Origin: Microglena sp. YARC
Lineage: Eukaryota > Chlorophyta > Chlorophyceae > Chlamydomonadales > Chlamydomonadaceae
Direction of reading: 5' to 3'
Length of the DNA: 64,000 nt
Assembly (NCBI GenBank): GCA_022414725.1
Contig: CM039462.1
Coordinates: 60,771,642 to 60,835,641 of the forward strand
Shown here: in pieces, positions 1,425 through 63,975 of the stretch
Position numbering within the stretch: the stretch's first letter is position 1
Layout: every line of letters starts with the position of its first letter
The notes under the pieces: model-generated
The model's database searches: none
The model's input: the letters and a program-made list of their open reading frames with translations, nothing else
What the model was told of the DNA's origin: nothing
Program-made: the position numbers and the translations under genes

Positions 1425-4400
1425 ATGCACTCCGCTAGCACAAAACGAACAGGCTTGCTGCCTGTACTGCTCCTCTTAGCTATCTCCTGCGGCGTTTCAG
1501 TGCACTGCCAGGATGTATCCGATGCGAATGGGAGGAGCCTACAACAATCCGGAGCAGGAACAGTAGTAATATTTGCAAAATCACCTCCTCCGTCTCCTGC
1601 TCCTCCCCCCTGACCCTCAATAGCCCAACCCCCCTGGTAACCCCCCGCCATGGTGGACTGTATCCCCTCCCCCTTCCCCCGCCCCCCCCCCCACCCCTCT
1701 CCCCGCCATGGTGGACTGTATCCCCTACCCCATCCTCGCCCTCCCCCACCCCTCTCCCCCCCATGGTGGACAGTATCCCCTCCCCCTCCCCCAATCCTCC
1801 TCCCCCCCCGCCCCCCCCTCCCTGGTGGACTCTAGTCTCACCCCACCCCCTTCCCCCCCACCCCGACCCCTTTCCCCCTCCCCCCACCCCCATCCTCCCG
1901 TCCCCCCTCCCTCCCCCACCCAAACCTCCTCAAAGCTCCAGCCCCCCATTCATCAGCCAGGGCAATGGACAAGGCACAGGCCGTACTGACCTAAAATACT
2001 CAAACTTTGAGATCCTCCCAGAGCTGAGCAACGTGGTAGCAGTGCACATGGTGATTGTCCCTGGTACCAACAAGATCCTCTTCATGGAGCGTCCCAGTGG
2101 CTACCACCCCGACAACTCCCGATCCATCGCCGGCACCATTGACCTAGACACTATGGAGTGGCAACACATCACTTCGCCTGACGGTCTGTTCTGCTGTGGA
2201 CACACCTTTACCTCGGACGGGCAGGTGATCGTGGTGGGCGGCCACCAGGACAACGCTGGCTGGCCCAGTGGTATGAAATCTATTCGCATTCTCAGTGTGG
2301 AAACATCCCAGCTGGAGAAGATCACCGAAATGTCATGGAACAGATGGTACCCTAGCGCCACCATCCTACCAAACCGCAAGGTGCTCGTCATGGGTGGAAC
2401 CCAGGCTGTGGGTGCTGGCTCCAGGAACAACCCGATGTATGAAATCTGGGACCCGGAGAGCCCCTACAGTATCCCTCAGCAGTTACAGGTCAATGAGCGC
2501 TTCCTCCGCCGCATCAACCAGAACTATTACCCTTTCAATTACATCATGCCAAGCGGTGACCTGTTTACCTTCTGCGGACGCCATGGGACCATCATGGACC
2601 CTTACAATGGTGAACTGGGTTGATTGGTTCATTTGATGTGTGTGCATGTTGTCGGGTGGGAGGGTGGGTGTGGGCATGGTTCCGGTGTGGTAGGTTGATT
2701 GGTTCATTTGATGTGTGTGTGCATGTTGTCGGGTGGGAGTGTGTGTGTGTGCATGGTTCTGGTGTGGTGGGTTGATTAGTTCATTTGATGTGTGTGTGCA
2801 TGTTGTCGGGTGGGAGGGTGTGTGTGTGTGCATGGTTCTGGTGTGGTGGGTTGATTGGTTCATTTGATGTGTGTGTGCATGTTGTCGGGTGGGAGGGTGT
2901 GTGTGTGTGCATGGTTCTGGTGTGGTGGGTTGATGGGTTCTTTTGATGTGTGTGTGCATGTTGTCGGTGGGAGGGAGTGTGTTGTGTGCATGGTTTCTGG
3001 TGTGTGGGTTGATTGGTTCATTTGATGTGTGTGTGCATGTTGTCGGGTGGGAGGTTGTGTGTGTGTGCATGGTTCTGGTGTGGTGGGTTGATTGGTTCAT
3101 TTGATGTGTGTGTGCATGTTGTCGGGTGGGAGGGAGTGTGTGTGTGCATGGTTCTGGTGTGGTGGGTTGATTGGTTCATTTGATGTGTGTGTGCATGTTG
3201 TCGGGTGTGAAGGTGTGTGTGTGCATGGTTCTGGTGGAAGGGAGGGTGTGGGCGTGGTTCCTGTTTACCTTCTGCGGACGCCATGGGACCATCATGGACC
3301 CTTACAATGGTGAGCTGGGTTGATTGCTTATTTTGATGTGTGTGTGTGCATGTTGTCGGGTGGAAGTGTGCGTGTAGTTTGTGGTTCCAGTGTGGTGGGG
3401 GCATGCTATTATGGGTGTGTGCATGTTGTTGGGTGGGAGGGTGGGCGTGGGCGTGATTCCGGTGTGGTGGGGCCATGCTATACTGGGTGTGTGCATGTTG
3501 TCGGGTGGGAGGGTGGGCGTGGTTCTGGTGTGGTGGGGGCATGCTATTATGGGTGTGTGCATGTTGTCGGGTGGGAAAGTGGGTGTGGGCGTGGTTCTGG
3601 TGTGGTGGGGCCATGCTATAATGGGTGTGCGCATGATCTTTGTATTGTCGACTTATGAATACTATACGCATGCATCTCTGATGTACAATATATTACTACA
3701 TGCAAAGATACTTAAATACAACTTATATATATCTTATATACAACTATGTTACACTATATGCAACTTATATACAACAAGTATACAATATATACATATATTC
3801 AATGTATACGTATATGCAATGTACAGCACTGTGGGGGTAGAAACGTAGGTTGAAAGGTAGATGTGAGGGATGCGTTTTTTGACCCCACCATACCACAACC
3901 ACACCACACCACCTCCCCTACTTCACACGTCCCCTTCCCTCACCACACCTCCTCCCCTTCCTTCACACGTCCCCTTCCCTCACCACACCATCCCACATCA
4001 CACCATCCCACCATCCGACATCACACCACACCATCCCACACCACACCATCCTACACACACACCTGACACCACACATGCTAACTGCTCTCTCCTGCCTACT
4101 CCTTCCCTGCAGCCAGCTTTACACCCTGCTGCCCAGGCGCAATGGTATGCCAAGCCTGCGCAGTACCCTTTACCGGTACCGGAGTGATGCTCATGCTGAA
4201 GCCCGAGGATGACTACCAAGTTCGAGTATGGTTTTTGGAGAGCCAATGAAGATACCACAAGAATCTGTCCAGGCCTGCTGGTAAATTTTCCTCCCGCATG
4301 ACCGTCACCCCTCCCGACAGCACTTTCCCCAACTACACCTTTGGCTCGGGATGGGTTACGGGAGATGATCGGCGAGAGGGTGATGGGAGACGCAACGCTT

Positions 4401-7221
4401 CTGCCTAACGGCCACGTGATCCTGGTCAATGGGGCCAAGGAGGGCCTGGCAGGGGACTCTGCTAATGGTGGTGAATCCAGGGCCAACTTCCCCCAGTTCT
4501 GGGCGGAGGAGTACAACCCCTATGCCCCTCTAGGCGAGCGCTTCACCAAGCTTTCCCGTTCTCAGATCCCCAGGATGTACCACTCTTCTGTAGTGCTCAC
4601 CCTGGATGGCAGGCTGTTAATCAGCGGTTGCGACAGGTGCAACCCTTTGCTGATTGTTTCGGACGAGACATTCATCCCCCCACCGGTAGGTAGCTTTGTT
4701 GTGCTGGTTTGCTTAGTTGTTCCATGCTTCAAGTGCTTATTTCGGGTTATTGGGGTGGGTGGGTGCAAGAGGTGCAAACCTTTGCTGATTGTGTTGGACG
4801 AGACGTTCATCCCCCCACGGGTAGGTAGCCTTGTTGTGCTGGCTTGCTTAGTTGTACAATGCTTCAAGTGCTAACAACAAGTTCTTCAAGTGCTTATTTC
4901 GGGTTATTGGGGTGGTGGGTGGGTCGATAGGTGCAAACCTTTGCTGATTTGTCGACGAGACGTTCATTCCCCACCAGTAGGTAGCCTTGTTTATGCTGGC
5001 TTGCTTAGTTGTACCATGCTTTAATTGATTCATTCAAGTGCTTGAATTGCTTACATCGAGTGCTTCAAGTGTCTTTTACGGGTTCTTATGGGTGGGTTTG
5101 TGGGTGGGGTCAGGGTAATACATTTCGTCATTTTGGTAATTGCTTTTGACGCAACTGCCTCCTTATGGGTTGCGCTTTTGACTCACCTGAAGACGGAAAT
5201 CTGCGCGCTGTGCCCAGAGGGGTTTTAACAAATTGCGTCAATTGGGCAGTCGGGCTCCAAAACCTTGCGCACTAGTGCGCAATAGCGCGCGTCATGTAGT
5301 ACCCTGGGGTGGGTGGGTGCAACATGTGCAATTTTTGGCTGCTGGTGTCAGACGAGGCATTTATCCCCTCACTGGTGGCGGGTGGCCTTGTTGTGCTGAC
5401 TTACACTGTATCATTTTTAGGGTTGAGGGTTTAGGATTTGTTGTGCTGACTTGCACTGTTTCATTTTTGGGCTAGCAGCTTCCACCCAGCTCCATTAGCC
5501 AGCGACTGAGTCAAGCCCGAAGATTACAGCTGCATTGGAATGCCTGTCATTTCAGCTTTCAGATGCACTAGCTAGCCTCAGGTTTGGTTCAAGTACAGAG
5601 ATAGGGAGCTGGCTAGAAGCTGCTATGCATAGCTAGAAACAGAAAGAGTGATCTTGTTTCTGCTGACCTTGCTTTAGTTGTACCTGAAAGAAGAAAGAAA
5701 AAAGTGATTTGTTCGAGTTAACATTTTCCTGGTAATTATTTATTTACTGCCGAAGACGGTGAGCAGCCAAATTGCTGGCTGAAGCTATGCACTTGTTAGT
5801 TGTACCTGTTCAAGTTCGAGTTAGTTGTACCTGTGTGGTGCTAAGTTGTTGTGTGCTATGTCATTCTGTGTTGTTGTGCTTGTGGCACAGAAAGCTGCTT
5901 TGTACCCAAAAGTGACATCAACAGGCTCTTACGTAGCAAAACCCCAAAACACCGAGGCACATCAATTTAGAACTTGTGCTGCATGTAGCACCTTCAAGAA
6001 AACTTTGCCAAACACCTGGAATCATGTCCTGTCCCATCGCTCACTCACTCACTCACTCACTCACTCACTCACTCACATCACTCACTCACTCACTCTCTCA
6101 CTCGCTCACTCACTCTCTCAACTGCACTCACTCACCCCTCACTCACTCCCACCTCACCCACTCACCCACTCACTCACTCACTCACCCACCCACCCACCCA
6201 CTCATCACTCACTCACTCACTCACTCACTCACTCACTCACTCACTCAATCAATCAATCAATCAATCATATGACTCACTCACTCACTCACTCACTCACTCA
6301 CTCACTCACTCACTCACTCACTCACTCACTCACTCACTCACTCACATCATCTCACTCACTCAATCACTCACTCACTCACTCACTCATCACTCACTCACCC
6401 ACCCACTCACTCACTCACTCACTCACTCACTCACTCACTCACTCACTCACTCACCCACCACCCACCCACCCACTCACCACCCACTCACTCACTCACTCAC
6501 TCACTCACTCACTCACTCACCTCACTCACTCACTCACCACTCACCTCACCCACTCACCCACCCACTCACTCACTCACACCCACCCACTCACCCACCCACT
6601 CACTCACTCACTCACTCACTCACTCACTCAATTAATCAATCAATGGACTCACTCACTCACTCACTCACTCACTCACCACTCACTCACTCACTCACTCACT
6701 CACTCACTCACTCACTCACCCACCACCCACCACCACCCACTCACTCACCCACCACTCACTCACTCACTCACGTCAATCACCCACCCACTTGCTCGCTCAC
6801 ACACTCACGTCACTTCACTCACTCACTTTCTTCTCCCCCTCTCCCCTCCCCTGTGAAGGCCGAGTACCGTATGGAGTACTTCTACCCCACATACTGGTAC
6901 AACTTCGAGAACAAGCCCAAGATCACCAACAACCCCCCCATCGTCACCTACAACCAGCAGTTCCTGGTGTCCTACACTGGAGAAATTACCGACTTCGTCA
7001 CGGTCACTTCAGCAGTGCTCGTAGCCCCCAGCTCCACCACTCACAGCTGGAACACCAACCAGCGTGTGGTGAAGATGGTGATTGCTGGTCATGATACCGC
7101 TGCCCAAACACTGCTGCTTGTGTCACCACCCAACAGCAGGATCGCCCCGCCTCAGATGTTCATGTTGTTCTTGCTGAACGGTGATACATACTCGAAGGGA
7201 ACCTGGATCAAGCTAGGATAG
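1425..7221 (+). CDS. Glyoxal/galactose-oxidase-like copper radical oxidase, frame disrupted
   Basis: A secreted oxidase of the galactose oxidase/glyoxal oxidase family (AA5), which oxidises aldehydes or alcohols and makes hydrogen peroxide. Exon 1 begins at ATG 1425 with a hydrophobic signal peptide ending near VHC. Exon 2 (about 1961-2609) carries LFCCGH, matching the radical-site Cys, and RWYPSA, matching the cross-linked Tyr. Exon 3 (about 4113-4685) has RVMGDATLLPNG and PRMYHSS, supplying the axial Tyr and a copper His. The last exon (6859-7221) has TTHSWNTNQR, the second copper His, then the family C-terminus. The exon 2/3 and 3/last junctions are phase compatible. Exon 1 reaches an in-frame TGA at 1611 and its donor is unresolved. 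Between 4200 and 4360 the homology moves through at least three frames, so this copy is either a pseudogene or carries assembly indels. Confidence 0.8.
1640..1850. repeat. C-rich tandem repeat in intron 1 of the oxidase gene
   Basis: Four to five units contain CCATGGTGGACTGTATCCCC separated by C-rich spacers. They lie between the signal-peptide exon and the catalytic exon. A proline-rich reading is open in several frames, so a proline-rich linker cannot be fully excluded. An intron is preferred because the reading frame from the signal peptide stops at 1611. Confidence 0.7.
2610..3655. repeat. Intron 2 minisatellite carrying a second copy of the exon 2 end
   Basis: About eight units of roughly 78 bp (core TTGATTGGTTCATTTGATGT) run from the exon 2 donor to about 3240. 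About five shorter units of roughly 61 bp follow at 3320-3640. Between the two blocks, 3262-3323 repeats the last 43 bases of exon 2 and its donor (2567-2625) almost unchanged. The first array unit starts with the intron's own donor-proximal sequence. Confidence 0.85.
3656..4112. other. Remainder of oxidase intron 2
   Basis: The first part (3650-3830) is AT-rich with repeated ATATAC/CTTATAT motifs. The second (3880-4075) is a CCACACCA/CCTTCCCTCACC microsatellite-like stretch. The acceptor is CTGCAG at 4107-4112. No gene is seen. Confidence 0.6.
4686..5420 (+). repeat. Tandem copies of the exon 3 end and donor of the oxidase gene
   Basis: The last 60-70 bases of exon 3 (encoding CNPLLIVSDETFIPPP) plus the donor GTAGGTAG recur, diverged, near 4765-4865, 4925-5035 and 5320-5405. 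Each copy keeps the exon-like part, a recognisable GACGAGAC or GACGAGGC core and intron-side sequence. The last two copies are separated by the MITE at 5111-5306. Confidence 0.85.
5111..5306 (-). mobile_element. hAT-like MITE, CAGGGTA family, copy 1
   Basis: The ends are CAGGGTAATACATTTCGTCA and its partner TGACGCG..TAGTACCCTG reading the other way. The 8-bp flanks (GGTGGGGT and GGGTGGGT) agree at 6 of 8 positions but lie in GGGT-rich DNA. Internal sequence is rich in GCGC and in 'tttttgacgcaa'-like segments shared with the other three copies. There is no coding capacity, so it depends on a transposase encoded elsewhere. It lies in the last oxidase intron. Confidence 0.75.
5690..5805 (+). repeat. 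Dispersed repeat with AAATTGCTGGCT palindrome
   Basis: A unit made of GTGATTTGTTCGAGTT, CCTGGTAAT, ACTGCCGAAGACGG and the near-palindrome CAGCCAAATTGCTGGCTGAA, followed by CAAGTTC repeats. Related copies lie at about 145-200, 8530-8650 (inverted), 8845-8970, 26430-26570, 26590-26680, 43680-43830 (inverted), 43930-43990 (inverted) and 49905-49960. Its class is not known; a short retroposon or MITE is possible. Confidence 0.75.
6040..6832 (+). repeat. (CTCA)n microsatellite in the last oxidase intron
   Basis: Nearly 800 bases of CTCA repeats, interrupted by CCCA, ATCA and AATC variants. It lies immediately upstream of the polypyrimidine tract and acceptor of the last exon (6859). The long open frame of Leu-Thr-His-Ser repeats is only this microsatellite translated. 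Confidence 0.95.
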
Positions 7222-7440
7222 ATATCCGGTCTACCCTAGATCTCAGATTGAATGCTGCTCGTGTCACCACCCTCCTCAGATGCTCATGCTGTTCTTGCTG
7301 AACAGCGGTGAATACTCTCGCGGAACCTGGATGAAACTAGGATAGATCTCCGTTTTAAACTGGATGAAACTAGGGTAGATCTCCGGTTTAGCCTGGATCA
7401 AATTAGGGTATACCTCCATTTTAAGGACCTAAACTCTAGC
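7222..7440 (+). repeat. 3' flank copies of the oxidase C-terminal codons
   Basis: Bases 7259-7345 repeat the end of the last exon, reading PQMLMLFLLN..GTWMKLG and a TAG stop, against PQMFMLFLLN..GTWIKLG in the gene. Two shorter copies of the terminal CTGGATGAAACTAGG segment follow at about 7357-7380 and 7398-7420. They lie in the 3' untranslated region or just beyond, and repeat the stop codon. Confidence 0.85.
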
Positions 7441-7449
7441 ATGTTGTAC

Positions 7450-44253: not shown

Positions 44254-44582
44254 GATTTCTTCGAAGCTGCTGCTGTTTCGGGTGAAGTGACAAGATGCCT
44301 CCTGTGTAGATTGGAGAATAAGAATAAGACGGATTGTCTGAACTTGAACTGTTGAATGATTGCTTGAATTGATTACTTGGAATTTAAATTTAAATTTGAC
44401 TGTTGATTGAATAATAATAATTCAAATTATAGAGGATGAAGAATTATTTTATGGTCATATAAGCCTGCAGGCGTCTGACCATATGCAAAATAAAATGCGT
44501 CTTTCCATGCTTTACCCACGGAAACCAGGGAGTTCATGACTCCTGTGCTGATTGGTACGTGATTAGAGATGTATGCTTGTCA

Positions 44583-51444: not shown

Positions 51445-52305
51445 AAACAACCACCCTTTAGCTGCCACAGCAATTTTATTGTCTCCTACACTTGTTGCCT
51501 TCACCAGGTCATAGGTTGAACAGGATCAGAGCATGCACTGCTGCTGCTTTCTCTAACTCTTATGTCAGACCGCACTGATCCTGTGAGGATCTGTTATCAC
51601 CCTTGAGCTGCCGCAGCAAGTTTAGGGTCTCCCAGACTTGTTGCCTTCACCAGGTCATAGGTTGAGCTGGACCAGAGCAAACACTGTTGCCGCTGTCTCT
51701 TACTCAATTGCCAGACCACACTGATTCTGTATGTATGGTTAAGTCCAGGGGTAGGCCAAATAGGCTAAAAGGACTGATCCTGTAAGAATCCCTCCTTACC
51801 CTTGAGCTGCCGCAGCAATTTTATAGTCTCCTAGACTTGTTGCCTTCACCAGGTCATAGGTTGAACTGGATCAGAGCATACACTGCTGCTGCTTCCTCTA
51901 ACTCTTTCGTCAGACTGCACTGATCCTGTACGTATGTTACAGTCAAGGGGTAGGCCAAATGGGCTAAAGGGACTGATCCTGTGAGAATCCCTTCTCACCC
52001 TTGAGCTGACGCTGCAATTATACGGTCTCCTAGACTTGTTGCCTTCACTAGGTCATAGGTTGGACTGGACCAGAGCATACACTGCTGCTGCTGCTGCTGC
52101 TGCTGCTTCCTCTTACTCTCTTGTCAGACCGCACTGATCCTGTGAGAATCCCCCGTCAACCTTGAGCTGCCGCAGCAATTTTACGGTCTCCCAGGCTTGT
52201 TGCCTTCACTAGGTCATAGGTCGGACTGGACCAGAGCATACACTGCTGCTGCTTCCTCTAACTCTATTGTCAGACTGCACTGGTCCTGTGAGAATCCCTC
52301 CTCAC
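51445..52305 (-). repeat. Five copies of the last visible coiled-coil-gene exon end
   Basis: The end of exon 52849-52306 (YDLEKATSLGDRKIAAAAQG then GTGAGG) recurs at about 51465, 51605, 51800, 52000 and 52155. Translations such as MTLVKATSLGD.KIAAAAQG are retained. Donor positions read GTGGTT, GTGATA, GTAAGG, GTGAGA and a mutated TTGACG. Two short repeat B copies sit inside units, at 51735 and 51935. Confidence 0.9.
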
Positions 52306-53690
52306 CCTTGAGCTGCCGCTGCAATTTTACGATCTCCTAGACTTGTTGCCTTCTCCAGGTCATAGGTTGGACTACATCTGAGCATGCACTGCTGCTGCAA
52401 GCTAGTGCAGAAGCTGGCGGTCTCCAAGACAGCTGGGGCTAACATTTCAAGCACCATTTTCAAGGCAGAGCTCTGATCGCCCTGCAGTGGGAAATTCAGG
52501 TCCAGAGCCCGAGCGACAGATGCCACCACCCCCTGCTCGTCTACGCCGGCGTCCTGAAGGCTCGCCATGGCCGACGCGATCGAGATCACTGTGGTGGCGG
52601 GGTCTATCGAGGCGGCCGACGTCTCCGGAAGCGGAGCGGCTTCAGTCGCGGCGAGCTTTGCCAAGGCGTCAGAGCTCTGGCTCTCTACATCGGTCAGGTG
52701 CTGCTCTAGCAGTGTCGCAACGAACTCTCCCATCTCCAGGTGCTCGTCGTCCTCGTCGGTCACTACAGGGCTGTGAGCGCCCCCCAGCAGAGGCGGCAGC
52801 ACGTGGGGCTCCAGGGCTGCCAGGAGGTGCGCCAGGATTATGGTCTCACCTGCAGCGATGGGTGCAGGTCAGGGTCAGAGGTGTGCATGCAGGTGTGCGT
52901 GGGGTGGGTTGGGGCGAGCTGGGTGAAAGCTGGGTGCGGGTGTGTGTGAAACATCCCAAGGGCTGCCAGGAGGTGCGCCAGGATTATGGTCTCACCTGCA
53001 GCGATGGGTGCAGGTCAGGGTCAGAGGTGTGCGTGCAGGTGTGTGAGGGGTGGGTTGGGGCGAGCTGGGTGAAAGCTGGGTGCGTGTGTGTGTGAAACAT
53101 CCCAAGGGCTGCCAGGAGGTGCGCCAGGATTATGGTCTCACCTGCAGTGATAAGTGCAGCAGGGTCAGAGGTGGGGTGTGTGCGGTGGTGGTGGTGGTGG
53201 TGGTGGTGGTGGTGGTGGTGGTTGTGGTGGTTGTGGTGGTGGTGGTGGTGGTGGTTGTGGTGGTGGTGGTGGTTGTGGTGGTGGTTGTGGTGGTGGTGTG
53301 TGTGCGGTGGTGGTGTGTGTGGTGGTTGTGGTTGTGGTTGTGGTGGTGGGGTGGGGTTGAATTGGGTGGGGTGGGTGGGTGGGGGTGAGCTGGGTGGAAG
53401 CTGGGTGTGTGTTTGTGGAAGGGAGGGGGGGGAGGAGAGGGAGGGGGAGGCAGTGTTTGTGTGTGTGGAGGGGGAGGGGGTGTGTAGGGGGAGGGGGGGT
53501 GCGTGTTTGTGTGTTTGGAAGTGAACAGAAATGATGATCTTACCTCTGAACTGCGAAGCTAACGCCTCCTTCAGCTTATTCAGCTTGGTGTGGAGGGGGA
53601 GGCAGTGTTTGTGTTTGTGTTTGTGGAGGGGGTGCGGAGGGCGAGGTGGTGTGTGTGGAGGGGGAGGCAGTGTGTGTGTGGAGGGGGAGG

Positions 53691-53733
<43 letters not shown>

Positions 53734-55150
53734 TGTGCGGAGGGGGAGGGGGTGTGGAGTGTGTGTGTATGTGTGTGGAGGTGTGTGAGTGGAGGTGTGT
53801 GTGTGTGTGTGTGTGGAGGTGAACGAGGATTATGGTCTCACCTCTGAACTGCAAAGTCAACGCCTCCTTCAGCTTGTTCAGCTTGTAAGACACTCTACTC
53901 GGGAACATGGCATCTAGGATATCAAGCACGTCCTGGCTAGACACCCGCGGCGCGGCGCGCTCCTCGGGGCTGAGGAGAGCCTGGGCAGGGGCATCCTCTT
54001 GGCTGCTGGATGCCACGTCGCCCTCTGTTCCTGCCGGTTCAGTTGGCGTGGCCTCGCTTGGTGCAGCTGCGGAAGGGAACAAGTGGAAAAGAATACAATA
54101 AATATATAGAACGCCTGGGTACGCCCTCTATTTCTGCTGGATCAGTTGGCATAGCCTCGCTTGGTGCAGCTGCGGAAGGGAACAAGTGGAAACAAATACA
54201 ATAAATAAATGGCAAGGATGCCTTGGCGCCTTCTATTCCTGCCGAGTCAGTTGGCGTGGCCTCGGTTAGTGCAGCTAGGGAGGGGAGCAAGTGAGCAAGA
54301 ATACAATACATGAATGGTAAGGACGCCTTGGCGCCGTTTGTCCCTGCCGAGTCAGTCGGCGTGGCCTCGGTTAATGCAGCTAGGGAGAGGAGCAAGTGAG
54401 CAAGAATACAATACATAAATGGCAAGGATGCCATGGCAACTTCTATTCCTGTCGAGTCAGTTGGCGTGGCCTTGGTTAGTGCAGCTAGGGAGGGGAACAA
54501 GTGGAAACAAATACAATAAATAAATGGCAAGGATGCCTTGGCGCCTTCTATTCCTGCCGAGTCAGTTGGTGTGGCCTTGGTTAGTGCAGCTAGGTAGGGG
54601 AACAAGTGGAAACGAATACAATAAATAAATGGCAAGGATGCCTTGGCGCCTTCTATTCCTGCCGAGTCAGTTGGCGTGGCCTTGGTTAGTGCAGCTAGGG
54701 AGGGGAACAAGTGGAAACGAATACAATAAAACAATGGTAAGGATGCCATGGCGCCTTCTATTCCTGCCCAATCAGTTGGCGTGGCCTCGGTTAGTGCAGC
54801 TAGGGAGGGGAGCAAGTGAGCAAGAATACAATAGATAAATGGTAATGATGCCATGGCACCTTCTATTCCTGCCGAGTCAGTCAGCATGGCCTCGCTTAAT
54901 GCAGCTAGGGAGAGGAGCAAGTGAGCAAGAATACAATACATGAATGGTAAGGACGCCTTGGCGCCGTTTGTCCCTGCCCAATCAGTTGGCGCGGCCTTGC
55001 TTAGTGAAGCTAGGGAGGGGAGCAAGTGGACAAGAAAACAATAAATGAATGGTAAGGATGCCATGGCACCTTCTATTCCTGCCGGCTCAGTTAGCGTGGC
55101 CTCGCTTGGTGCAGCTGGGGAGGGGAACAAGAATACAATACATAAATAAG

Positions 55151-55225
<75 letters not shown>

Positions 55226-58200
55226 GAAAATAATGGTAAGGGTGCCTTTGCGCCTTCTGTTCCTTCTGGCTCAGTTGGCGTGGCCCCGCTTGGTGCAGCT
55301 GGGAAGGAAAACAAATGGACAAGAATACAATACATCAATGGTACAGTATGTGTTTAACCACATTCACATTCACATCCACGTGCTCAAGCACATGCCCACG
55401 TTCACAACTGCCATGTATATATCCAAGAATACACAAATGCTACGCCATGTATTTACCCACATTCACATCCACACACACACACATTCACATGCACACATTC
55501 ACATCCACATGCACACATTCACATCCGCGTGCAAACATTCACATCCACATGCACACATTCACATCCACATGCACACATTCACATCCACATGCACACATTC
55601 ACATCCACATGCACACATTCACATCCACACGCACACATTCACATCCACATGCACACATTCACATCCACACGCACACATTCACATGCACATGCACACATTC
55701 ACATCCACATGCACACATTCACATCCACATGCACACATTCACATCCACACGCACACATTCACATGCACACATTCACATCCACACGCACACGCACACATTC
55801 ACATGCACACATTCACATCCACACGCACACATTCACACGCACACATTCACATCCACATGCAAACATTCACATCCATATGCACACATTCACATCCAAACAT
55901 AAAAATCATATCCAAACACACACATATCCACACACACACTAAGTGTCATGGACACATTTTTACCCTCTGCTGGCAGCGCCGTCAAGGGCAGGCATGACAC
56001 CATGTGGCAGAGCACAGTCACCATGAGAACCACAATTCCACATCCAAACACACACACACACACACAAACTGTCATTGGCGTATTCTTACCTGCTGCTTGC
56101 AGCACTGCCAAGGGCAAGCGGGACACAATGTGGCGGAGCACAGTCACCACGAATACCACAATTCCGCATCCAAACACATATCCCCACATCCACAACTGTC
56201 CTGCCTTCATACTGCCACCAATATCCCATGTCACTTATATCCAGGGGTCGGCTATGTTATATAATATAAGTGAATACAGTAATGATAACGCCTGATGGGG
56301 CGTGGTGTTAAGGGAGCCCGTCGTACGCGGGTGGGGAGCGGTCTCCTACCTCAACTGGACAAGCTACCATCGCGGTTGACGACGACCTGCAACGCCAAGA
56401 GCGACCGAAGGGGGAGTCGAACCCCCGACTCTTCATTCTTTAGCGATCTGGTCTACCACTAGACCATTGTAAACCGCTAAAGAGGCTATATTATATAATA
56501 TAAGTCGGACGAGCCGTCTCACAAGAAATTTGAATTTATTTGGAAACTAACGTTATTGTGACACTATGATAATATCAGTTAATATCAGTTTTCCAAACAC
56601 CAATATTAGTTGCTGTTCCCTACTCATATCATCTGGGGAGGCCAGGTGTTATCTGGCAGGGGAAAGCCTGGTTCAATTACAAGGTCTTATATTTATTCGT
56701 TTACTTTACCTACCCTCTGCTGGCAGCAATGCTGAAGGGAGGCGTGACACCATGTGGCGGAGTGCAGTTACCACAGTCACCACAATTACACATCCAAACA
56801 CATTTACACACAACCACAACTGTCCTGCCTTCATACTGCCACCAATATCGTACGTCACCAATATCGTCTGGGGAACACGTGTTGTCAGGCACAATAACAA
56901 GTTTTTTTGAAGTTGGAAAAGGAATTATTAACACAAGGAGGTGGGTCTCCCGACACAAACCAGCGACACCGAGGATTCAGTTCGAATGGCATTGCCACTC
57001 CTTATCTTGTACTTATTCGTTTACTTCACTTACCCTCTGCTGGTAGCACCGCCAAGGGCAGGCGTGACACCGTGTGGCGATGCGCAGTTACCATGAGAGC
57101 CTGCTCCTCCTGCACCTCCTCGCTCACCAGCCCAGACAGCACTGGCCATAAGAGCCGGACGGTCGCACTAGACTGGGCGTGATCGGCGCAGGCCGCACAC
57201 GCACACACACACACAAACTGTCACGGACAAATTCTTACCTTCTGCTGGCAGCACTGCCAAGGGGAGGCGTGAGACCATGTGGCGGAGCGCAGTAACCATG
57301 AGAGCCTGCTCCTTCTGCACCTCCTCGCTCACCAGCCCAGACAGCACTGCCCAGAAGAGGCGGACGGTCGCACTAGACTGGGCGTGATCTGCGCAAGCTG
57401 CATACAAGCTGTAGGTGGAGGCTGCCACACGCTGGTGTGCGGTGCTTCCGGTGGGAGTCTGACCCAGGGCGGCCAGGTAGAAGGTGTAGAGGTAGGAGTG
57501 GAGGGGTTGGCCGACATGCGAGCGGTCGTACACCCGCTTTGCCTGCATGAAAGTGAGGGTTTGGTTTGGTTGGTTTTGGTTGGGTTGGGTTGGTTTTTGC
57601 CTGCAAGCGAGCGAGGGTTGGGTTGGGTGTGGTGTGCAGTGCTTCCGGTAGGAGTCTGACCCAGGGCGGCCAGGTAGAAGGTGTAGAGGTAAGAGTGGAG
57701 GGGTTGGCCGACATGGGTGCGGTCGTACACCCGCTTTGCCTGCATAAAAGCGAGGGTTGGGTTGGGGTTGGTTCGGTTGGGTTGGTTTTTGCCTGCAAGC
57801 GAGTGAGGGTTGGGTTGGGTTGGGTGCGGTGCGGTGTGCAGTGCTTCTGGTGGGAGCCTGCCCCAGGGCGGCCAAGTAAAAGGTGTAGAGATAGGAGTAG
57901 AGGGGTTGGCCGACATGCGTGCGGTCGTACACCCGCTTTGCCCTCATGAAAGAGAGCAAGGGTTGAGTTGGGTCGGTTGTGTTGGGTTGGGTTTTGCCTG
58001 CAAGTGAGCGAGGGTTGGGTTGGGTGTGGTGTGCGGTGCGTCCGGTAGGAGCCTACCCCAGGGCGGCCAGGTAGAAGGTGCAGAGGTAGGAGTAGAGGGG
58101 TTGGCCGACATGTGTGCAGTTGTGCACACGCTTTACCTGTAAGCGAGGGTTGGGTTGGGTTGGGTTGGGTAAGGTTGGGTTGGGTTGGGTTGAGTTGGAT

Positions 58201-60428
58201 TTTGCCTGCAAGCAAAGTATCGAAGCCATGCATATAAGTAATAATTACGCCCCCCCCCCCCCCCCCCCCCCCCTCCACACACACACACACACACACTACC
58301 ATCACAGAAACACAACTTCCAAATCTGGAGAATTTCATCCTCCAGGCGCGCTAGCGTGAAGGGTGCGAGGGTGATCTTCTCTCCCTTCACCCACTTAAGA
58401 CAGCGAGGAACACTGTGGGCCAGCCCCCCCCCCACACACACACACCCCCCCACCACCCCCCCCACCCCACCACCACAGAAACACACCTTCCAAATCTGGA
58501 GAATGTCGTCTCTCAGGCGGGCCAGGGTGAAGCGTGCGAGGGTTATCTTCTCTCCCTTCGCCCATCTAAGACAGCGAGGAACACTAGGGGCCAGACCCCC
58601 CCCCACCCACCCACCACCACCACCACCACCACCACAGAAACACACCTTCCAAATCTGGAGAATGTCATCTCTCAGGCGGGCCAGGGTGAAGCGTGCGAGG
58701 GTTATCTTCTCTCCCTTCGCCCATCTACGACAGCGAGGAACACTAGGGGCCAGACCCCCCCCCCACACACACACACCACCACCACCACACCGCCACAGAA
58801 ACACACCTTCCAAATCTGGAGAATGTCATCTCCCAGGCGGGCCAGGGTGAAGCGTGCGAGGGTTATCTTCTCTCCCTTCGCCCATCTAAGACAGCGAGGA
58901 ACACTAGGGGCCAGACCCCCCCCACCCCCACCCACCCCACAGAAACACACCTTCCAAATCTGGAGAATCGCATCCTCCAGGCGGGCCAGCGTGAAGTGTG
59001 CGAGGGTGATTTTCTCTCCCTTCGCCCATCTAAGACAGCGAGAAACACTAGGGGCCAGACCCAGGCCCTCAGCTTGACTAGGTGCGCGCTCCTTCTCATC
59101 GCCTTCTTCCTCGGTGATGAAATACGCAGAGGAGTCGGTGGTGATGGTGAGGGAGACCTCGTAGGGTAAGGGGTCAGGTGCGAGCAATGCCTCCAGAAGC
59201 TGGGCCTGTGGGTGTGTGTCAGTGGGTGTGTGTCAGTGTGTCAGTGGGTGTGTGTGGGTCAGTGTGTGGGGGTCAGTGTGTGTGGGAGGGGGGATAGGGC
59301 AGCGTGATAAGTATGGTGCAATGCAGCTGGTTCAGTACGCAGAGGAGTCGGTGGTAATTGTGAGGGAAACCTTGTAAGGTAAGGGGTCAGGTGCGAGCAT
59401 GCTCCAGAAAGCTGGGCCTGTGGGTGTGGGTCAGTGGGTGTGAATCGGTGGTGTGGGGAGGGAATACTTGTGGGGTAAGGAGTCAGGTGCGAGCAATGCC
59501 TCTTGAAGCTGGGCCTGTGGGAGTGAGTCAGTGTGTGTGTGGGTCAGTGGGTCAGGACAGCAATACCCACACACCCGCATTGACACCACTGCACTCAAGG
59601 CTTGCCACACATATATAGGACGCCAAAATGCTTTCTGTTCCGAGGCTAACTCAGTCACCTTCACTGCCGCGCGCAGATCGTCCCCTGCACCGTGCTGCCC
59701 CCCCCCCCCTCCCCATTCCCACCCACACATAAACCTTCCCCACCCCCCCCGCCACACACGCCGCACACCTCCCCTCCATACCCCCACCCCCCTGTAATTG
59801 ACACCCTTGCCCCCCCCCCCCCCCCCCCTCCCCATTCCACCCACACATAAACCTTCCCCACCCCACCCCCACACACGCCGCACACCTCCCTTCCATTACC
59901 CCCCCCCCCCTGTAATTGACACCCTTGCCCCCCCCCCCCCCCCCCCCCCCCCATTCCCACCCACACATAAACCTTCCCACCACCCCACCCCACCCCCACA
60001 CACGCCGACCCTCCCTTCGATTACCCCCACCCCCCTGTAATTGACACCTTGCCCCCCCCCCCCCCCCTCCCCCCCTCCCATTCCCACCCACACATAAACC
60101 TTCCCACCCCCACCGCCGGAGCACAACACCTCCCCTCCATACCCCCCCCCCCTGTAATTGACAACCCTTGCCCCCCCCCCCCCCCCCCTCCCCTCCCCCA
60201 TTCCCACCCACACATAAACCTTCCCCCCCCACCCCACCCCCACAACACGCCGCACCACCTCCCTCCATCCCCCCCCCCCCCACCACACCCCACGCCGCAC
60301 ACTCCCTGTAAATTGACACCCCTTAGCCCCCCCCCTCCCCCATTCCCACCCACGATAAACTTCCCCACCCCACCCACCCCCACGCCGCACACCTCCCTCA
60401 TACCCCCCCCCCCTGTAATTGACACCCT

Positions 60429-60465
<37 letters not shown>

Positions 60466-60697
60466 ACACACACACATAAACCTTCCCCCCCCCCCCCCCC
60501 CCCACCACGCCGCACTCCTCCCCTCCATACCCCCCCCCCCCCCTGTAATTGACACCCTTGCCCCCCCCCCCCCCCCCCCCCCCTCCCCCCCTCCCCCATT
60601 CCCACCCACACATAAACCTTCCCCCCCACCCACCCACCCACACGCCGCACACCTCCCCTCCATACCCCCCCCCCCCCCCCCCTGTAATTGACACCCT

Positions 60698-60731
<34 letters not shown>

Positions 60732-60959
60732 CCCCCCCCCCCCTCCCCCATTCCCACCCCACACATAAACCTTCCCACCCCACCCACCCACACGCCGCAC
60801 ACCTCCCCTCCATACCCCCCCCCCCCTGTAATTGACACCCTTGCGCCCCCCCCCCCCCTGCCAACACATACCTTGGACATCAAGGCTTTCTGTTCTGAGA
60901 CAAACTCCGCCAGCCTTGCTGCCGCCGCAAAGATCGTATCCTGCGTCTTGCTGCGACCC

Positions 60960-60998
<39 letters not shown>

Positions 60999-61347
60999 CC
61001 TCGTCATTGACACCCCTGCATTCACCGCCTGCCACACATACCTTGGAGGCCAAGTTCTTCTGTTTGGAGACAAACTCAGCCAGCCTTGCTGCTGCTGCAA
61101 AGACCGTATCCTGCGTCTTGCTGCCGACCTCCCCCCCCCCACCCCCCCACCACTAGTCATTGCATTCACCGCCTGCCACACATACATTTGACGTCAAGTC
61201 CTTCTGTCCTAAGGTAAACTCAGCAAGCCTTGGTGCCGCCTGCAAATATGGTCTCCTGCGTCTTGCTGCCCCCCCACCCACCCACCACCACCCCACCCAC
61301 CCACCCACCCACCCACACCTACATACACACGTCATTGCATTCACCGC

Positions 61348-61384
<37 letters not shown>

Positions 61385-61552
61385 CCCCACACATTAACCT
61401 CCCCCCCCCCCCCCACCCACACCTACATACACACGTCATTGCATTCACCGCCTGCCACATACCTTGGACGCCAAGTCCTTCTGATCTGAGACAAACTCAG
61501 CAAGCCTTGCTGCCGCCGCAAAGATCGTATTCTGCGTCTTGCTGCCAACCTC

Positions 61553-61604
<52 letters not shown>

Positions 61605-63975
61605 CATACACACGTCATTGCATTCACCGCCTGCCACACATACCTTGGACGCCAAGTCCTTCTGATCCGAGACAAACTCCGCCAGCCTTGCCGCCGCCGC
61701 AAAGACCGTATCCTGCGTCTTGCTGCCGATCTCAACGCCGTGCTTTTTAACCGGCTCCCAGCTTGGCCTCGGAGTCATGCTGCCCAGTCGCTCCATTAAG
61801 TTAGCCTTCTCCTTTTCCAGGTCCCTAATACGCTGCCGAGAAGCATCCTCTCCCTCTTTTAGCGCCTCCCGCAAGGCTTTCATTTTGTCTTTCAAAGATT
61901 CCAGTTCCTCTGGTGGTGGTGTGGGGTGGGTGGGGTGTGGGGGGGGGTAGTTGAGGTGTGTGTGAGTTTTACAGTCGCTCCATCAAGTTAGGCTTCTCCT
62001 TTTACAGTTCCCTGGTACGCTGCCGAGAAGCATCCTCGCCCTCCTTTAGCGCCTCACGCAAAGCTTTCATTTTGTCTTTCAAAGATTACAGTTCCTCTAG
62101 TGGTGGGGTGGGGTGGGGGTGGGGGGTAGAGGGGTGAGGCGTGTGTGGTGGTGGTTCATCGCTTCCCGCAAGGCTTTAACTTTGTCTTTTAAAAGATTCC
62201 AGTTCCTCTGGTGTGTGTGTGGGTGGGGGTGGGGAGGTAGGGGGGTGAGGTGTTGTGTGGAGGTGGTTCAGCGCTTCCCGCAGAGCTTTCATCTTGTCTT
62301 TCAAAGATTACAGTTCCTCTAGTGGTAGGGTGGGGTTGGGTTGGGTGGACGTGGTGGGGTATTGGGGTGAGGTGTGTTTGGTGGTGGTTCAGGTTTCCCA
62401 CAAGGCTTTCATCTTGTCTTTTAAAGATTCCAGTTCCTCTGGTGGTGGGTGGGGTGGGGTGACGTGGGCGTGGTGGGGTATTGGGGTGAGGTGTGTGTGG
62501 TGGTGGTTCAGCGCTTCCCAGAAGGCTTTCATCTTGTCTTTCAAAGATTCCAGTTCCTCTGGTGGTGTGTGGGGTGGCCGCATGGTGGTGGTGGTGTGTG
62601 GTGGTGGTGGTGGTGGTGGTGGTGTGTGGTGTGTGGGGGGGGTAAGATGGACTTTCATTTTGTCTTTGAAAGATTCAAGCTCCTCTGGTGGGTGGTGGTG
62701 GTGGTGGGTAAGGTGAGGAGGTTTTGTCTTGTTTTTGACTTGTGTTTTTGTTAAACTTAACCAGGCTAGACCTCACCTGGTGGCGGCCGCATGTTCAGCG
62801 CATGTTGCATGTCGCGTGTCTCGCGGTGGGCAGCCTCGGCAGCTTTGTTGGCTTCGCTTACTTGCTTGCTCATGTATGTCATGTTCTGATCACTGGCTAC
62901 CTGCGATGGGGTGGGGTGGGGTGAGGTGATAATGCGCTCAGTTCATTGTATGTTGCATGTAGCGTGTTTTGAAGTGGCCAGTGTTGTTGGCTTTGCTCAC
63001 TTGCTTGCTTATGTACGTCATGTTCTGATCACTGGCGACCTGTGGTGTGGTGATGAGGTGTGGTGTGGTGTGGTGTGGTGTGGTGTGGTGAGGTGGGGTG
63101 TGGTGAGGTGGGGTGATGTGTGGTGTGGTGTGGTGTGGTGTGGTGGTGTGGGGTGAGGTGAGGTGGGGTGATGTGAGGTGAGGTAAGGTGAGGTGTGGTG
63201 TGGTGTGGTGTGGTAAGGTCAGGAGAGGTGAGCTGAGGTGAGGTGAGGTGAGGTGAGGTGGGGTGAGGTGAGGTGAGGTGAGGTAAGGTAAGGTAAGGTA
63301 AGGTAAGGTAAGGTAAGGTAAGGTAAGGTAAGGTAAGGTAAGGTAAGGTAAGGTAAGGTAAGGTGAGGTGAGGTGAGGTGAGGTGCGGTGTGGTGAAGTT
63401 GGGTGGGGTGGGGTAGGGTAGGGTGGAGTGAGGTGATGTGTGGTGAAGTTGGGTGGGGTGGGTGTGGGTGGGGTGGGGTGGGGTAGGGTAGGGTAGGGTA
63501 GGGTAGGGTAGGGTAGGGTAGGGTAGGGTAGGGTAGTGTGGTGTGGTGTGGTGTGGTGTGGTGTGGTGTGGGTGAGGTGAGGTGAGGTGAGGTGGGTGTG
63601 GTGAGGTGGGGTGAGGTGAGGTGAAGTGAGGAGAGGAGAGGAGAGGTGGGGGTGGGGTGGGGTGGGGTGAGTGAGATGAGGTGAAGTGGGGTGGGGTGAT
63701 AATGCGCTCAGTTCAGTGTATGTTGCATGTCGCGTGTCTCGCAGTGGGCAGCCTCGGCAGCTTTTTTGGCTGAGCTTACTTGCTTGCTCATGTATGTCAT
63801 GTTCTGATCACTGGCTACCTGTGGTGGGGTGGGGAGGTGAGGTGGGGTGAAGTGAGGGTTTTTTCGGGGTGTCCTTTTCTGATACCAGCTCATCCCCCCC
63901 CCCACCACCACCACCACCACCACCACCACCATCACCTTAAGCTGAGCATGGGCTTCCATTTCTGATGCCAGCTCA
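52306..63975 (-). CDS. Uncharacterised coiled-coil protein gene, both ends missing
   Basis: Seven exons: (about 63975)-63936, 62900-62777, 61909-61644, 59205-58951, 57542-57239, 54066-53842 and 52849-52306; all have GT-AG borders and phases agree throughout, giving about 585 codons. The first three are charged and heptad-like (VASDQNMTYMSKQVSEANKA; EELESLKDKMKALREALKEG; RIRDLEKEKANLMERL), so a coiled coil. The next (RCLRWAKGEKITLAHFTLAR; AKRVYDRTHVGQPLHSYLYT; RLFWAVLSGLVSEEVQK) look helical and globular. The last is acidic and Ala/Ser-rich. I do not recognise the family; a cytoskeletal or ciliary protein is only a guess. The start lies beyond the right edge, and the 3' exon was not found left of 52306. 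Introns consist almost wholly of junction-copy arrays. Confidence 0.85.
52850..53165 (-). repeat. Copies of the acceptor and start of exon 52849
   Basis: Two further copies (starts near 52998 and 53142) of GCTGCAG then GTGAGACCATAATCCTGGCG and CACCTCCTGGCAGCCCTTGG, 130-150 bp apart. Plus-strand GGTGTGTGTGAAACATCCC and GGGGCGAGCTGGGTGAAAGC lie between. The same GTGAGACCATAATCCT text also follows the upstream exon's donor at 53841. Confidence 0.93.
53166..53520. repeat. (GGT)n/(GTT)n tract
   Basis: GGTGGT and GGTTGTGGT triplets from 53180 to 53350, then G-rich GTGTGTGGAGGGGGAGG units. Poly-Val and poly-Gly frames are repeat artefacts. Confidence 0.92.
53525..53841 (-). repeat. Copy of the exon 54066-53842 end, plus (GT)n
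   Basis: 53530-53590 repeats the exon end (minus strand AAGCTGAATAAGCTGAAGGA to CAGTTCAGAG and GTAAGATCAT). 53600-53690 has GTGTGTGGAGGGGGAGG units. 53697-53735 is (GT)n. Confidence 0.92.
54067..55320 (-). repeat. Array of the acceptor and start of exon 54066
   Basis: Eleven units of about 105-125 bp. On the minus strand each has TTGTTCCC or TTGCTCCC, TAGCTGCACNAA or CGCAGCTGCACC, GCGAGGCCACGCCAACTGA and CCGGCAGGAATAGAAGGCGC. Translations read variants of AAPSEATPTEPAGTEGAKAS. Several units keep the AG acceptor. The long minus frame through the units is maintained but includes intron-like text, so it is not taken as coding. (AAAT)n fills 55143-55224. Confidence 0.92.
55450..55930. repeat. 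CACATTCACATCCACATG minisatellite
   Basis: About 25 units of 18 bp (CACATTCACATCCACATG) with shorter 12-bp variants. Lies in the intron between exons 57239 and 54066. Confidence 0.95.
56242..56622. mobile_element. hAT-like MITE, GCAACTA subtype, split by a SINE
   Basis: Ends CAGGGGTCGGCTATG and CAGTTGC..GTTCCCTA (right end reads TAGGGAACAGCAACTA on the minus strand). The flanking octamers CTTATATC (56234-56241) and CTCATATC (56623-56630) agree at 7 of 8. Text GTCTCACAAGAAATTTGAAT and ATTGTGACACTAT matches the element at 35285 in inverted orientation. Without the SINE the element is about 155 bp. Confidence 0.85.
56280..56483 (-). mobile_element. tRNA-derived SINE, full-length, inside a MITE
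   Basis: Minus strand: a 7-bp acceptor-like stem (AGCGGTT with GGTCGCT), A box TGGTCTAGTGG, B box GGTTCGACTCC, then the body GCGTTGCAGGTCGTCGTCAA to GGCGTTATCATTA. A 22-base target duplication with one mismatch lies at 56250-56271 and 56484-56505, taken from MITE sequence. The best-preserved copy in the window and the reference for the family; transcribed, if at all, by RNA polymerase III from the A and B boxes. Confidence 0.93.
57543..58210 (-). repeat. Copies of the acceptor and start of exon 57542
   Basis: Three further units of 180-190 bp (starts near 57742, 57945 and 58135). Minus-strand CTTTTATGCAG then GCAAAGCGGGTGTACGACCG and translations AKRVYDRTHVGQPLHSYLYT and FYLAALGQTPTGS are retained. 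CCCAACCCAACC tracts separate units. The (GGTTGGGT)n at 58145-58200 is similar. Confidence 0.94.
58245..58950 (-). repeat. Copies of the exon 59205-58951 end with donor
   Basis: Four further copies (about 58330-58420, 58485-58590, 58640-58745, 58805-58910) encode variants of RCLRWAKGEKITLARFTLAR and DILQIWK, each followed by GTGTGTTTCTGTGG. C-run and CACACA tracts separate them, with 21-22 C at 58251-58272. Confidence 0.95.
59206..59560 (-). repeat. Copies of the acceptor and start of exon 59205
   Basis: Two diverged copies (about 59415-59335 and 59525-59460) of CACAG then GCCCAGCTTNNGGAGGCATT and GCTCGCACCTGACNCCTTAC. GTGGGTGTGTGTCAGTG repeats lie between. Confidence 0.9.
59561..61643 (-). 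repeat. Exon 61909-61644 end copies and a C-run minisatellite
   Basis: Copies of the exon end (SKTQDTVFAAAARLAEFVSD then QKDLASK and GTATGTGTGGCAGGCGGTGA) lie at about 61550-61460, 61265-61180, 61120-61035, 60955-60870 and 59685-59600. 59695-60855 is an array of about ten 110-120 bp units, CCTGTAATTGACACCCTTG, a C-run, CCATTCCCACCCACACATAA and ACCTTCCC..CACGCCGCACACCTCC. C-runs reach 45 bases (60431-60475). Confidence 0.93.
61910..62690 (-). repeat. Copies of the acceptor and start of exon 61909
   Basis: Seven units of 80-130 bp, each with minus-strand CCACCAG or CTAG, AGGAACTGNAATCTTTGAAA, GACAAGATGAAAGCC and T/GCGGGAAGCGC. The unit at 62098-61975 is longer and matches DASRQRIRDLEKEK..LMERL. 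Translations start EELESLKDKMKA. GGGGTGGTGTGTGGTGG spacers. Confidence 0.95.
62901..63935 (-). repeat. Copies of exon 62900 and pentanucleotide arrays
   Basis: Two further copies of the exon start (acceptor plus VASDQNMTYMSKQVSSAKKA, 63820-63710; and VASDQNMTYISKQVSKANNT, 63037-62945). Between them 63050-63700 is a mosaic of GGTGT, GGTGA, GGTAA (63283-63361) and GGGTA (63480-63535) pentanucleotides. A diverged copy of the most upstream exon's end lies at 63855-63895. Confidence 0.93.

What the first reader, a model, noticed from the sequence alone, without database searches (positions are those of the whole stretch)
1425..63975. Tandem arrays built from copies of exon ends and splice sites, in every gene
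In all four genes the arrays filling introns and 3' flanks carry diverged copies of the adjoining exon end, usually with the donor or acceptor. Examples: ARP2 exon 4 end (seven copies), exon 6 start (about fifteen), exon 7 start (about nine); coiled-coil gene, at all seven exons; AP2 gene, exon ends at 41170, 41955 and the C-terminus; oxidase exon 2, exon 3 and C-terminus. The copies sit on the correct side of the junction and diverge to different degrees, so this is recurrent local duplication spanning exon-intron borders, not insertion of foreign satellites. A genome-wide process anchored at splice junctions would be a new route of intron growth. I know of no named system of this kind.
Basis: seen in the sequence. 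Interest (0 to 1): 0.93.

Follow-up and report, generated by a model that had tools for sequence, protein, structure and literature searches.

The report
Intron arrays copying neighbouring exon ends
In this plant-lineage (probably green algal) genome, about half of the tested exon ends have been copied, often with the splice site, into tandem repeats in the neighbouring intron; the pattern is real and occurs in other genes too, but it looks like spill-over from very active local DNA duplication rather than a process aimed at splice sites, and a small-scale version was already known from amphioxus as 'mirages'.

Summary
Observation confirmed. With exons fixed independently, 22 of 43 splice junctions have a same-strand copy of the 45-nt exon end in the adjoining intron; reversed or reverse-complemented introns give 0 of 43. 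I count 83 copies; the splice dinucleotide survives in 64 of the 78 that cover it. It is not local to this window: 40 of 86 exon ends in 14 actin- and TCP1-family genes on four large contigs show it.

Ordinary intron positions are duplicated at least as often (724 of 1087) as exon ends (62 of 129), and the two rates track each other across 18 genes (rho 0.84). Copies fade to zero about 150 nt into exons, also occur at stop-codon ends, and mostly straddle the junction. Best reading: pervasive local tandem duplication, tolerated when it spans a junction because the proximal splice site still works, with the exon kept intact by selection.

A named precedent exists: 'mirage' minisatellites of amphioxus (PMC3087553). 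New here are the lineage and the scale. Automated gene models of this locus take several copies as exons.

The parts
12176..33098 (-). ARP2-like gene, 9 exons: 33098-33051, 28030-27962, 27092-26946, 26436-26307, 24379-24132, 19194-19030, 17827-17696, 15439-15332, 12259-12176 (376 aa, open)
   Evidence: tblastn with ARP2 and splice sites; homologs; EukProt gene26368-17462_t is an automated, partial model of it
24866..26144 (-). 7 copies of ARP2 exon 4 end (donor GT kept in 5, GC in 1, not covered in 1)
19279..23461 (-). 12 copies of ARP2 exon 6 start upstream of exon 6; acceptor AG kept in 9
   Evidence: the copy at 20172-20080 is used as an exon in EukProt gene26368-17462_t
17895..18699 (-). 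8 copies of ARP2 exon 7 start; acceptor AG kept in 3; nearest copy 97% identical
26735..26877 (-). 2 copies of ARP2 exon 3 end with donor GT
23843..24079 (-). 2 copies of ARP2 exon 5 end
18788..18955 (-). 3 short copies of ARP2 exon 6 end
28240..28302 (-). 1 copy of ARP2 exon 2 start with acceptor AG
27197..27261 (-). 1 copy of ARP2 exon 3 start with acceptor AG
52302..62900 (-). Coiled-coil gene exons X2-X7: 62900-62777, 61909-61644, 59205-58951, 57542-57239, 54066-53842, 52849-52302; N-terminal part (acyl-CoA-binding and ankyrin domains in gene26371-17465_t) lies beyond 64000
63936..63983 (-). Copy of the upstream exon end (DELASE.EAHAQLK) with donor, not the true exon
62941..63844 (-). 2 copies of X2 start with acceptor AG; the distal one is the last exon of EukProt gene26371-17465_t, which splits the gene model
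61972..62715 (-). 6 copies of X3 start with acceptor AG
59587..61552 (-). 5 copies of X3 end, donor GT kept in 4
   Evidence: the first is taken as an exon in gene26370-17464_t
59336..59541 (-). 2 copies of X4 start with acceptor AG
58303..58918 (-). 4 copies of X4 end, donor GT kept in 3
57630..58162 (-). 3 copies of X5 start, acceptor AG kept in 1
55934..57183 (-). 4 copies of X5 end with donor GT
54122..55328 (-). 11 copies of X6 start with acceptor AG
52850..53841 (-). Intron X6-X7: its first 27 nt match the start of exon X7 at 24 positions (AG|GT duplication, intron-birth signature); also 1 copy of X6 end and 2 of X7 start
51452..52252 (-). 5 copies of the X7 C-terminal end beyond the stop codon (no splice site there)
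39426..44302 (-). AP2 gene exons: N1 (start uncertain, end 44022), N2 43400-43274, A1 42794-42656, A2 42051-41955, A3 41742-41634, A4 41278-41170, A5 40832-39426
40942..41109 (-). 2 copies of AP2 exon A4 end with donor GT
41876..41907 (-). 1 copy of AP2 exon A2 end with donor GT
39046..39246 (-). 3 copies of the AP2 C-terminal end (no splice site)
1425..7221 (+). Glyoxal-oxidase-like gene; exons 1961-2609, 4113 (start uncertain)-4685, 6859-7221, first exon from 1425 (end uncertain)
   Evidence: Pfam Glyoxal_oxid_N
3260..3339 (+). Copy of oxidase exon 2 end with donor GT, 95% identical
4761..5007 (+). 2 copies of oxidase exon 3 end with donor GT
7270..7365 (+). Copy of oxidase C-terminal end (no splice site)

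Best explanation
The arrays are boundary-spanning tandem duplications of the kind called 'mirages' in amphioxus, produced by a high rate of local tandem duplication of DNA across this genome. Shown: introns of the sampled genes are largely made of direct local duplicates; exon ends are caught at a rate that follows the surrounding intron's rate; copies are direct only, mostly cross the junction, and vanish about 150 nt into exons. Inferred: a segment that starts in an exon and ends in an intron can be duplicated at no cost, because the proximal donor (or distal acceptor) still makes the same mRNA. The exon copy is then held constant by selection, so it stays recognisable and keeps acting as a template, while the intronic copies drift and are themselves re-duplicated. 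Duplications inside exons are removed by selection. Introns would thus grow mainly inward from both ends. In one intron (X6-X7) the same process appears to have created the intron itself, by duplicating an exonic AG|GT segment.
For: Direct only: 22 of 43 junctions versus 0 of 43 reversed and 0 of 43 reverse complement; elsewhere 40 of 86 versus 0 and 0 of 86. Spill-over: edge rate versus intronic rate per gene, Spearman 0.84, p=1.4e-5, 18 genes; pooled 62 of 129 versus 724 of 1087; Mantel-Haenszel odds ratio 0.70, z=-1.6. Decay from edge into exon, 23 of 40 at the edge to 0 of 17 at 150 nt. 71 of 84 splice-edge copies run >=10 nt past the junction. 9 copies lie at stop-codon ends of three genes. 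Copies decay as neutral DNA: exon part and intron flank retain dinucleotides alike (75.4% and 74.5%), splice dinucleotides 64 of 78 versus 75% background, p=0.19; 32 of 83 are frame-broken. Copy-to-copy identity exceeds a star expectation in 12 of 13 arrays, so copies are re-copied; in 8 of 9 arrays with at least four copies identity falls with distance from the exon. In 6 of 7 introns all donor-side copies precede all acceptor-side copies; the seventh departs only by the birth signature. Intron birth: 24 of 27 nt, score 39 against a highest null of 23.
Against: No polymorphism or mutation-rate data, so the high duplication rate is inferred from standing copies. The nearest-is-most-similar trend could also come from homogenisation; only three single arrays reach p of about 0.05 or less. 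The birth signature is rare: one clear case of 21 window introns (two more score 18, just above their highest nulls of 14 and 16) and at most one weak case of 43 elsewhere (score 31; 4 of 1688 nulls also reach 30). Elsewhere 3 of 69 exon-interior 45-mers (>=100 nt from match ends) also have an intron match, so the exon interior is not wholly clean there. Intron positions tested exclude simple or shared repeats (209 of 582 and 335 of 1049 dropped), and edges in the 14 other genes are profile-match ends, not exact junctions. Introns with copies are longer (median 1408 versus 604 nt; 15 and 7 introns), but not significantly (p=0.24).
Confidence: 0.82

Rival explanations
1. A duplication process is targeted to splice junctions (for instance through R-loops or G-rich tracts at donors) and seeds arrays there.
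For: About half of the tested exon ends are hit. Sense-strand GC skew is positive at intron starts and negative at intron ends (means +0.14 and -0.29, p=4e-4, 21 introns), so junction flanks are compositionally special.
Against: Exon ends are not enriched over intron positions; intron positions within 200 nt of a junction (62%) are less covered than deep ones (78%); stop-codon ends are copied too; junctions mostly lie inside the units.
Confidence: 0.07
2. The copies are functional: alternative exons, decoy splice sites or splicing regulators kept by selection.
For: Splice dinucleotides kept in 64 of 78; automated models include several copies as in-frame exons; 51 of 83 exon parts are open.
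Against: Splice sites are not retained significantly above background (p=0.19) and exon parts decay like intron flanks. Each copy carries one splice site only, and donor copies precede acceptor copies in 6 of 7 introns, so a complete new exon is rarely offered. The one ARP2 homolog aligned in full (P0002) has no such insertions.
Confidence: 0.07
3. The arrays are assembly artefacts of long repeats.
For: Repeat-rich regions are error-prone and no raw reads could be examined.
Against: Copies are 72-100% identical to the exon, mean 86%, differ individually, and occur in unrelated genes on four large contigs.
Confidence: 0.02
4. Copies arise through RNA (reverse splicing or retro-insertion of splicing intermediates).
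For: Copies were found on the sense strand and next to their source.
Against: Units carry both exon and intron sequence across an unspliced junction (71 of 84 by >=10 nt), sit in tandem, and none was found inverted. Stop-codon ends are copied in the same way.
Confidence: 0.02

Closest known systems
'Mirage' minisatellites of amphioxus (Adh3, globins BflGb6/BflGb9, troponin C, PGBD5)
   Same: [quoted passage not shown] many units keep AG/GT signals; unit identity 81-100% in BflGb6; concerted turnover within arrays; proposed as a source of introns (PMC3087553, section 16 read in full; PMC3902484, one passage read).
   Different: Reported in what I read for single genes with few units; here about half of the tested exon ends in 18 genes, up to 12 copies per end, in a plant-lineage genome. 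Length instability and undisturbed splicing were reported there, and not tested here.
[quoted passage not shown] Hellsten et al., both known through citing papers; potato RdRp case)
   Same: Intron X6-X7 starts with a copy of the next exon's start at an AG|GT. The potato case is likewise a duplication crossing an intron-exon boundary (PMC4974935, abstract and section 5 read; PMC3443670, passages read).
   Different: Most copies here sit in existing introns and make them longer; they do not make new ones.
Internal tandem repeats at exon-intron boundaries of human segmental-duplication genes; introns from tandem arrays (Zhuo et al. 2007, seen only as a citation)
   Same: Minisatellite units overlapping boundaries change intron structure (PMC2812944, passages read).
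   Different: Restricted to recent human paralogs; 27 intron modifications in that study.
Tandem-repeat-rich introns of green algae (Chlamydomonas, Volvox)
   Same: Highest repeat density is in introns, with more repeats near intron ends (PMC3887541, abstract and passages read).
   Different: Top intron motifs there are GT/AC dinucleotides; the passages I read do not mention copies of exon ends.

Membership tests
Amphioxus-type 'mirage' minisatellites | Tandem direct repeats whose unit spans an exon-intron boundary | tested here: met
   22 of 43 junctions, 0 inverted; 71 of 84 copies cross the junction by >=10 nt
Amphioxus-type 'mirage' minisatellites | Repeat units carry cryptic AG/GT splice signals | tested here: met
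   64 of the 78 copies that cover the site
Amphioxus-type 'mirage' minisatellites | Array units re-copied among themselves (concerted turnover) | tested here: met
   Copy-copy identity above star expectation in 12 of 13 arrays with at least three copies, the other a tie; some margins are small
Amphioxus-type 'mirage' minisatellites | Normal splicing is not disturbed | not testable with these tools
   No RNA data; only that spliced models of ARP2, coiled-coil and AP2 genes using the proximal sites are open
Amphioxus-type 'mirage' minisatellites | Length instability or polymorphism between haplotypes | not testable with these tools
   One assembly only
Tandem-genomic-duplication intron gain (AG|GT) | Intron 5' end duplicates the start of the downstream exon, or its 3' end the upstream exon's end | tested here: met
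   Clearly only in intron X6-X7, 1 of 21 in the window; elsewhere at most 1 weak case of 43
Tandem-genomic-duplication intron gain (AG|GT) | Intron absent from relatives | not tested
   The only relatives found for the coiled-coil gene are this locus's own models
   62 of 129 versus 724 of 1087; odds ratio within genes 0.70, z=-1.6

The most novel reading that the evidence does not exclude
This genome is in a genome-wide 'mirage regime': constant local tandem duplication with coding exons as the only fixed points, so that roughly half of all exon ends are being copied outward and introns grow from both ends towards the middle, occasionally giving birth to new introns by the same step. Exon copies of known source and graded divergence would then be a datable record of how each intron grew.
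Probability: 0.6. Interest if true: 0.72.

Novelty: new variant of a known kind. Interest (0 to 1): 0.56.

Why it matters
How introns become long is rarely visible, because their sequence decays without a reference. Here the neighbouring exon is a conserved reference, so the order, age and source of intron duplications can be read. It extends mirage arrays from amphioxus to the plant lineage and to a scale at which they touch 16 of 18 genes tested. It also warns annotators: automated models of two of these genes contain copies as exons, and one gene is split in two at such a copy.

Tried and rejected
Rejected: splice-junction anchoring; selection keeping splice sites in copies; intron birth as a common event; a clear length difference between introns with and without copies (p=0.24). 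My first exon list wrongly took 63983-63936 as an exon and missed two AP2 introns; searches use that list, the corrected one (one search takes its copies). The intronic control pooled for the four window genes is (first list). In one search I left out two actin-family profile matches of one gene (G5) that hold several stops, one of which lies inside a tested gap, and merged two adjacent TCP1 matches into one exon.

Led nowhere: the species could not be named. I thought of Cymbomonas and Mesostigma and read passages on both, but assembly sizes differ (914 and 442 Mb against 568 Mb here). No tRNA or Rfam hit. A Plasmodiophora paper proved irrelevant. No test of microhomology at breakpoints was run; G-run junctions were only seen by eye.

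Full report
What the window is. The window is 64 kb of a eukaryotic genome: bases 60771642-60835641 of contig C1 (195 Mb) of an unnamed 568 Mb assembly in 2390 contigs. It holds an ARP2-like gene, a coiled-coil gene, an AP2-domain gene and a glyoxal-oxidase-like gene. I built spliced models by homology and splice sites. ARP2 (376 aa, 9 exons), the coiled-coil gene and AP2 are open throughout; the oxidase has two uncertain exon ends. Searches returned automated EukProt models of this very locus: gene26368-17462_t (ARP2), gene26369-17463_t (AP2), gene26370-17464_t and gene26371-17465_t (two halves of the coiled-coil gene). They agree with my models over the coiled-coil gene, over AP2 apart from exon A2 and the two termini, and over the second half of ARP2; the ARP2 model misses exons 1, 2, 4, 9 and part of 5. 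The ARP2 and AP2 relatives point to the green plant lineage; the species is not determined.

The observation. For each splice junction I took the 45 coding bases at the exon end and searched the adjoining intron. On the corrected exon list 22 of 43 junctions have a copy scoring at least 30 and above 40 windows of other introns and 40 shuffles of the same intron. Reversed introns give 0 of 43, reverse-complemented introns 0 of 43, another intron reaches 30 in 1 of 43, and exon-interior 45-mers 0 of 43. By gene: ARP2 8 of 16, coiled-coil 10 of 11, AP2 2 of 12, oxidase 2 of 4. Counting every copy with BLAST gives 93 on the first list: 84 at splice ends and 9 beyond stop codons; the corrected list gives 83 at splice ends. 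Mean identity of the 84 to their source is 86%, range 72-100.

Not confined to this window. Using profile matches of the actin family and the TCP1 family I took 14 further multi-exon genes on contigs C1 to C4: nine actin-family genes, and five of the eleven TCP1-family loci I had meant to take. Of 86 exon-match ends, 40 have a same-strand copy in the neighbouring intron, again 0 reversed and 0 inverted; 12 of 14 genes have at least one. If matches with internal stops are dropped it is 30 of 66. For 6 of 86 ends another gene's intron also reached 30, and ends were counted only if their own intron scored higher. Three of 69 exon-interior 45-mers also matched. Two TCP1-family genes have none (0 of 6, 0 of 4). 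In an actin gene at C1:94.86-94.87 Mb, tblastn shows the start of one exon repeated five times upstream of the true exon. So the phenomenon is genome-wide as far as sampled.

Is it anchored at splice junctions? No. Non-simple 45-mers from inside the same introns have a copy elsewhere in that intron in 275 of 373 cases in the window and 449 of 714 in the other genes. Exon ends are lower, 62 of 129 against 724 of 1087 pooled. Within genes the Mantel-Haenszel odds ratio is 0.70 (z=-1.6), so exon ends are not favoured and may be slightly disfavoured; pooled Fisher p is 6e-5 in that direction. Exon-end rate follows intron rate across 18 genes with rho 0.84. Intronic positions near junctions (62%) are no richer than deep ones (78%). 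The share of exon segments with a copy falls from 23 of 40 at the edge to 0 of 17 at 150 nt. The junction usually lies inside the repeat unit (71 of 84 copies continue >=10 nt past it). Ends with stop codons, where no splice site exists, are copied too in the coiled-coil, AP2 and oxidase genes, though not in ARP2. A conserved exon partner should if anything make exon copies easier to detect, so the absence of enrichment is conservative.

How it most likely works. Local tandem duplication is abundant in introns here: Tandem Repeats Finder marks 58% of intronic bases, 11% of exonic ones and 27% of the rest. A duplication that starts in an exon and ends in the intron leaves the proximal donor working, and the mirror case leaves the distal acceptor working; both should be neutral. 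Duplications inside exons are not. The exon stays constant while the intronic copies drift: their exon part and intron flank retain dinucleotides alike (75.4% and 74.5%), splice dinucleotides are kept 64 of 78 times against 75% expected (p=0.19), and 32 of 83 are frame-broken. Copies resemble each other more than independent copies of the exon would in 12 of 13 arrays, so arrays also amplify from existing copies; in 8 of 9 arrays with at least four copies, similarity falls with distance from the exon. Donor-side copies come before acceptor-side copies in 6 of 7 introns that have both, as growth from the two ends predicts. 48% of intronic bases lie between a junction and its farthest copy. Steps not shown: the actual mutation mechanism, its present rate, and normal splicing.

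Intron birth. Intron X6-X7 begins GTGAGACCATAATCCT..CACCTCC, and exon X7 begins with nearly the same 27 bases (24 identical; score 39, best of 20 mismatched pairs 23). This is what duplication of an exonic AG|GT segment leaves. No other of the 21 window introns tested shows it clearly (two score 18, just above their highest nulls of 14 and 16), and elsewhere there is at most one weak case of 43. The process may make introns, but in what can be seen it mainly lengthens them.

What is known. [quoted passage not shown]), and in PGBD5 and troponin C (PMC3902484, one passage). The original Adh3 paper was not held and is known to me only by citation. Intron gain by tandem duplication is established, including a case where the duplication crosses a boundary (PMC4974935, abstract and section 5; PMC3443670, passages). 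Tandem repeats are known to be densest in introns, with more towards intron ends, in two green algae (PMC3887541, abstract and passages). My searches for boundary-spanning arrays listed no title or abstract opening that reports exon-end arrays on this scale or in algae; I opened only some of the papers listed, and subscription journals are mostly outside that library.

Consequences for annotation. The automated ARP2 model contains the intronic copy at 20172-20080 as an exon; the coiled-coil model contains copies from 61552, 59541 and 57183; and the same gene is cut in two because a copy of exon X2 at 63844 ends gene26371. That is at least 5 of the copies counted. Whether any of them is really spliced in cannot be told without RNA.

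Limits. One assembly, no reads, no RNA, no relatives. The 14 extra genes are two families chosen for conservation, not a random sample, and their exon ends are profile-match ends. Long gaps (11 and 21 kb in two actin-family genes) may hide unrecognised exons.

Noticed in passing
52850-53841: Intron X6-X7 looks born by tandem duplication of an exonic AG|GT segment: its first 27 nt repeat the start of the next exon.
   Followed up: yes
L024; G000:C1:60835900-60836900: Just upstream of the window the same gene has an exon start (DAIMRIEEQ..) five times in about 1 kb, and the automated model gene26371-17465_t carries that motif five times in its protein.
   Followed up: partly
introns of all four genes: Sense-strand GC skew is positive in the first 300 nt and negative in the last 300 nt of introns (means +0.14 and -0.29, 21 introns).
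   Followed up: partly
13150-14259 and 20889-21937: Very regular 31-bp (36 copies) and 25-bp (42 copies) arrays, 96% matches, younger-looking than most exon-copy arrays.
   Followed up: no
44870-46012, minus strand: 381-aa open frame that by eye resembles the C-terminal part of a non-LTR retrotransposon protein; no Pfam hit.
   Followed up: no
about 8000-8600, 9600-9970, 42500-43900: By eye, recurring short fragments of one dispersed repeat family, apparently in both orientations.
   Followed up: no
12176-33098: The ARP2-like protein is divergent (about 50% to the closest named green ARP2s) and lacks about 14 residues near its second exon compared with human ARP2 as I recalled it; it may be a paralog and not the main ARP2.
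   Followed up: partly
4113-4400: Start of oxidase exon 3 shows conserved-looking residues in more than one frame, suggesting a missed small intron, an indel or an assembly error.
   Followed up: no
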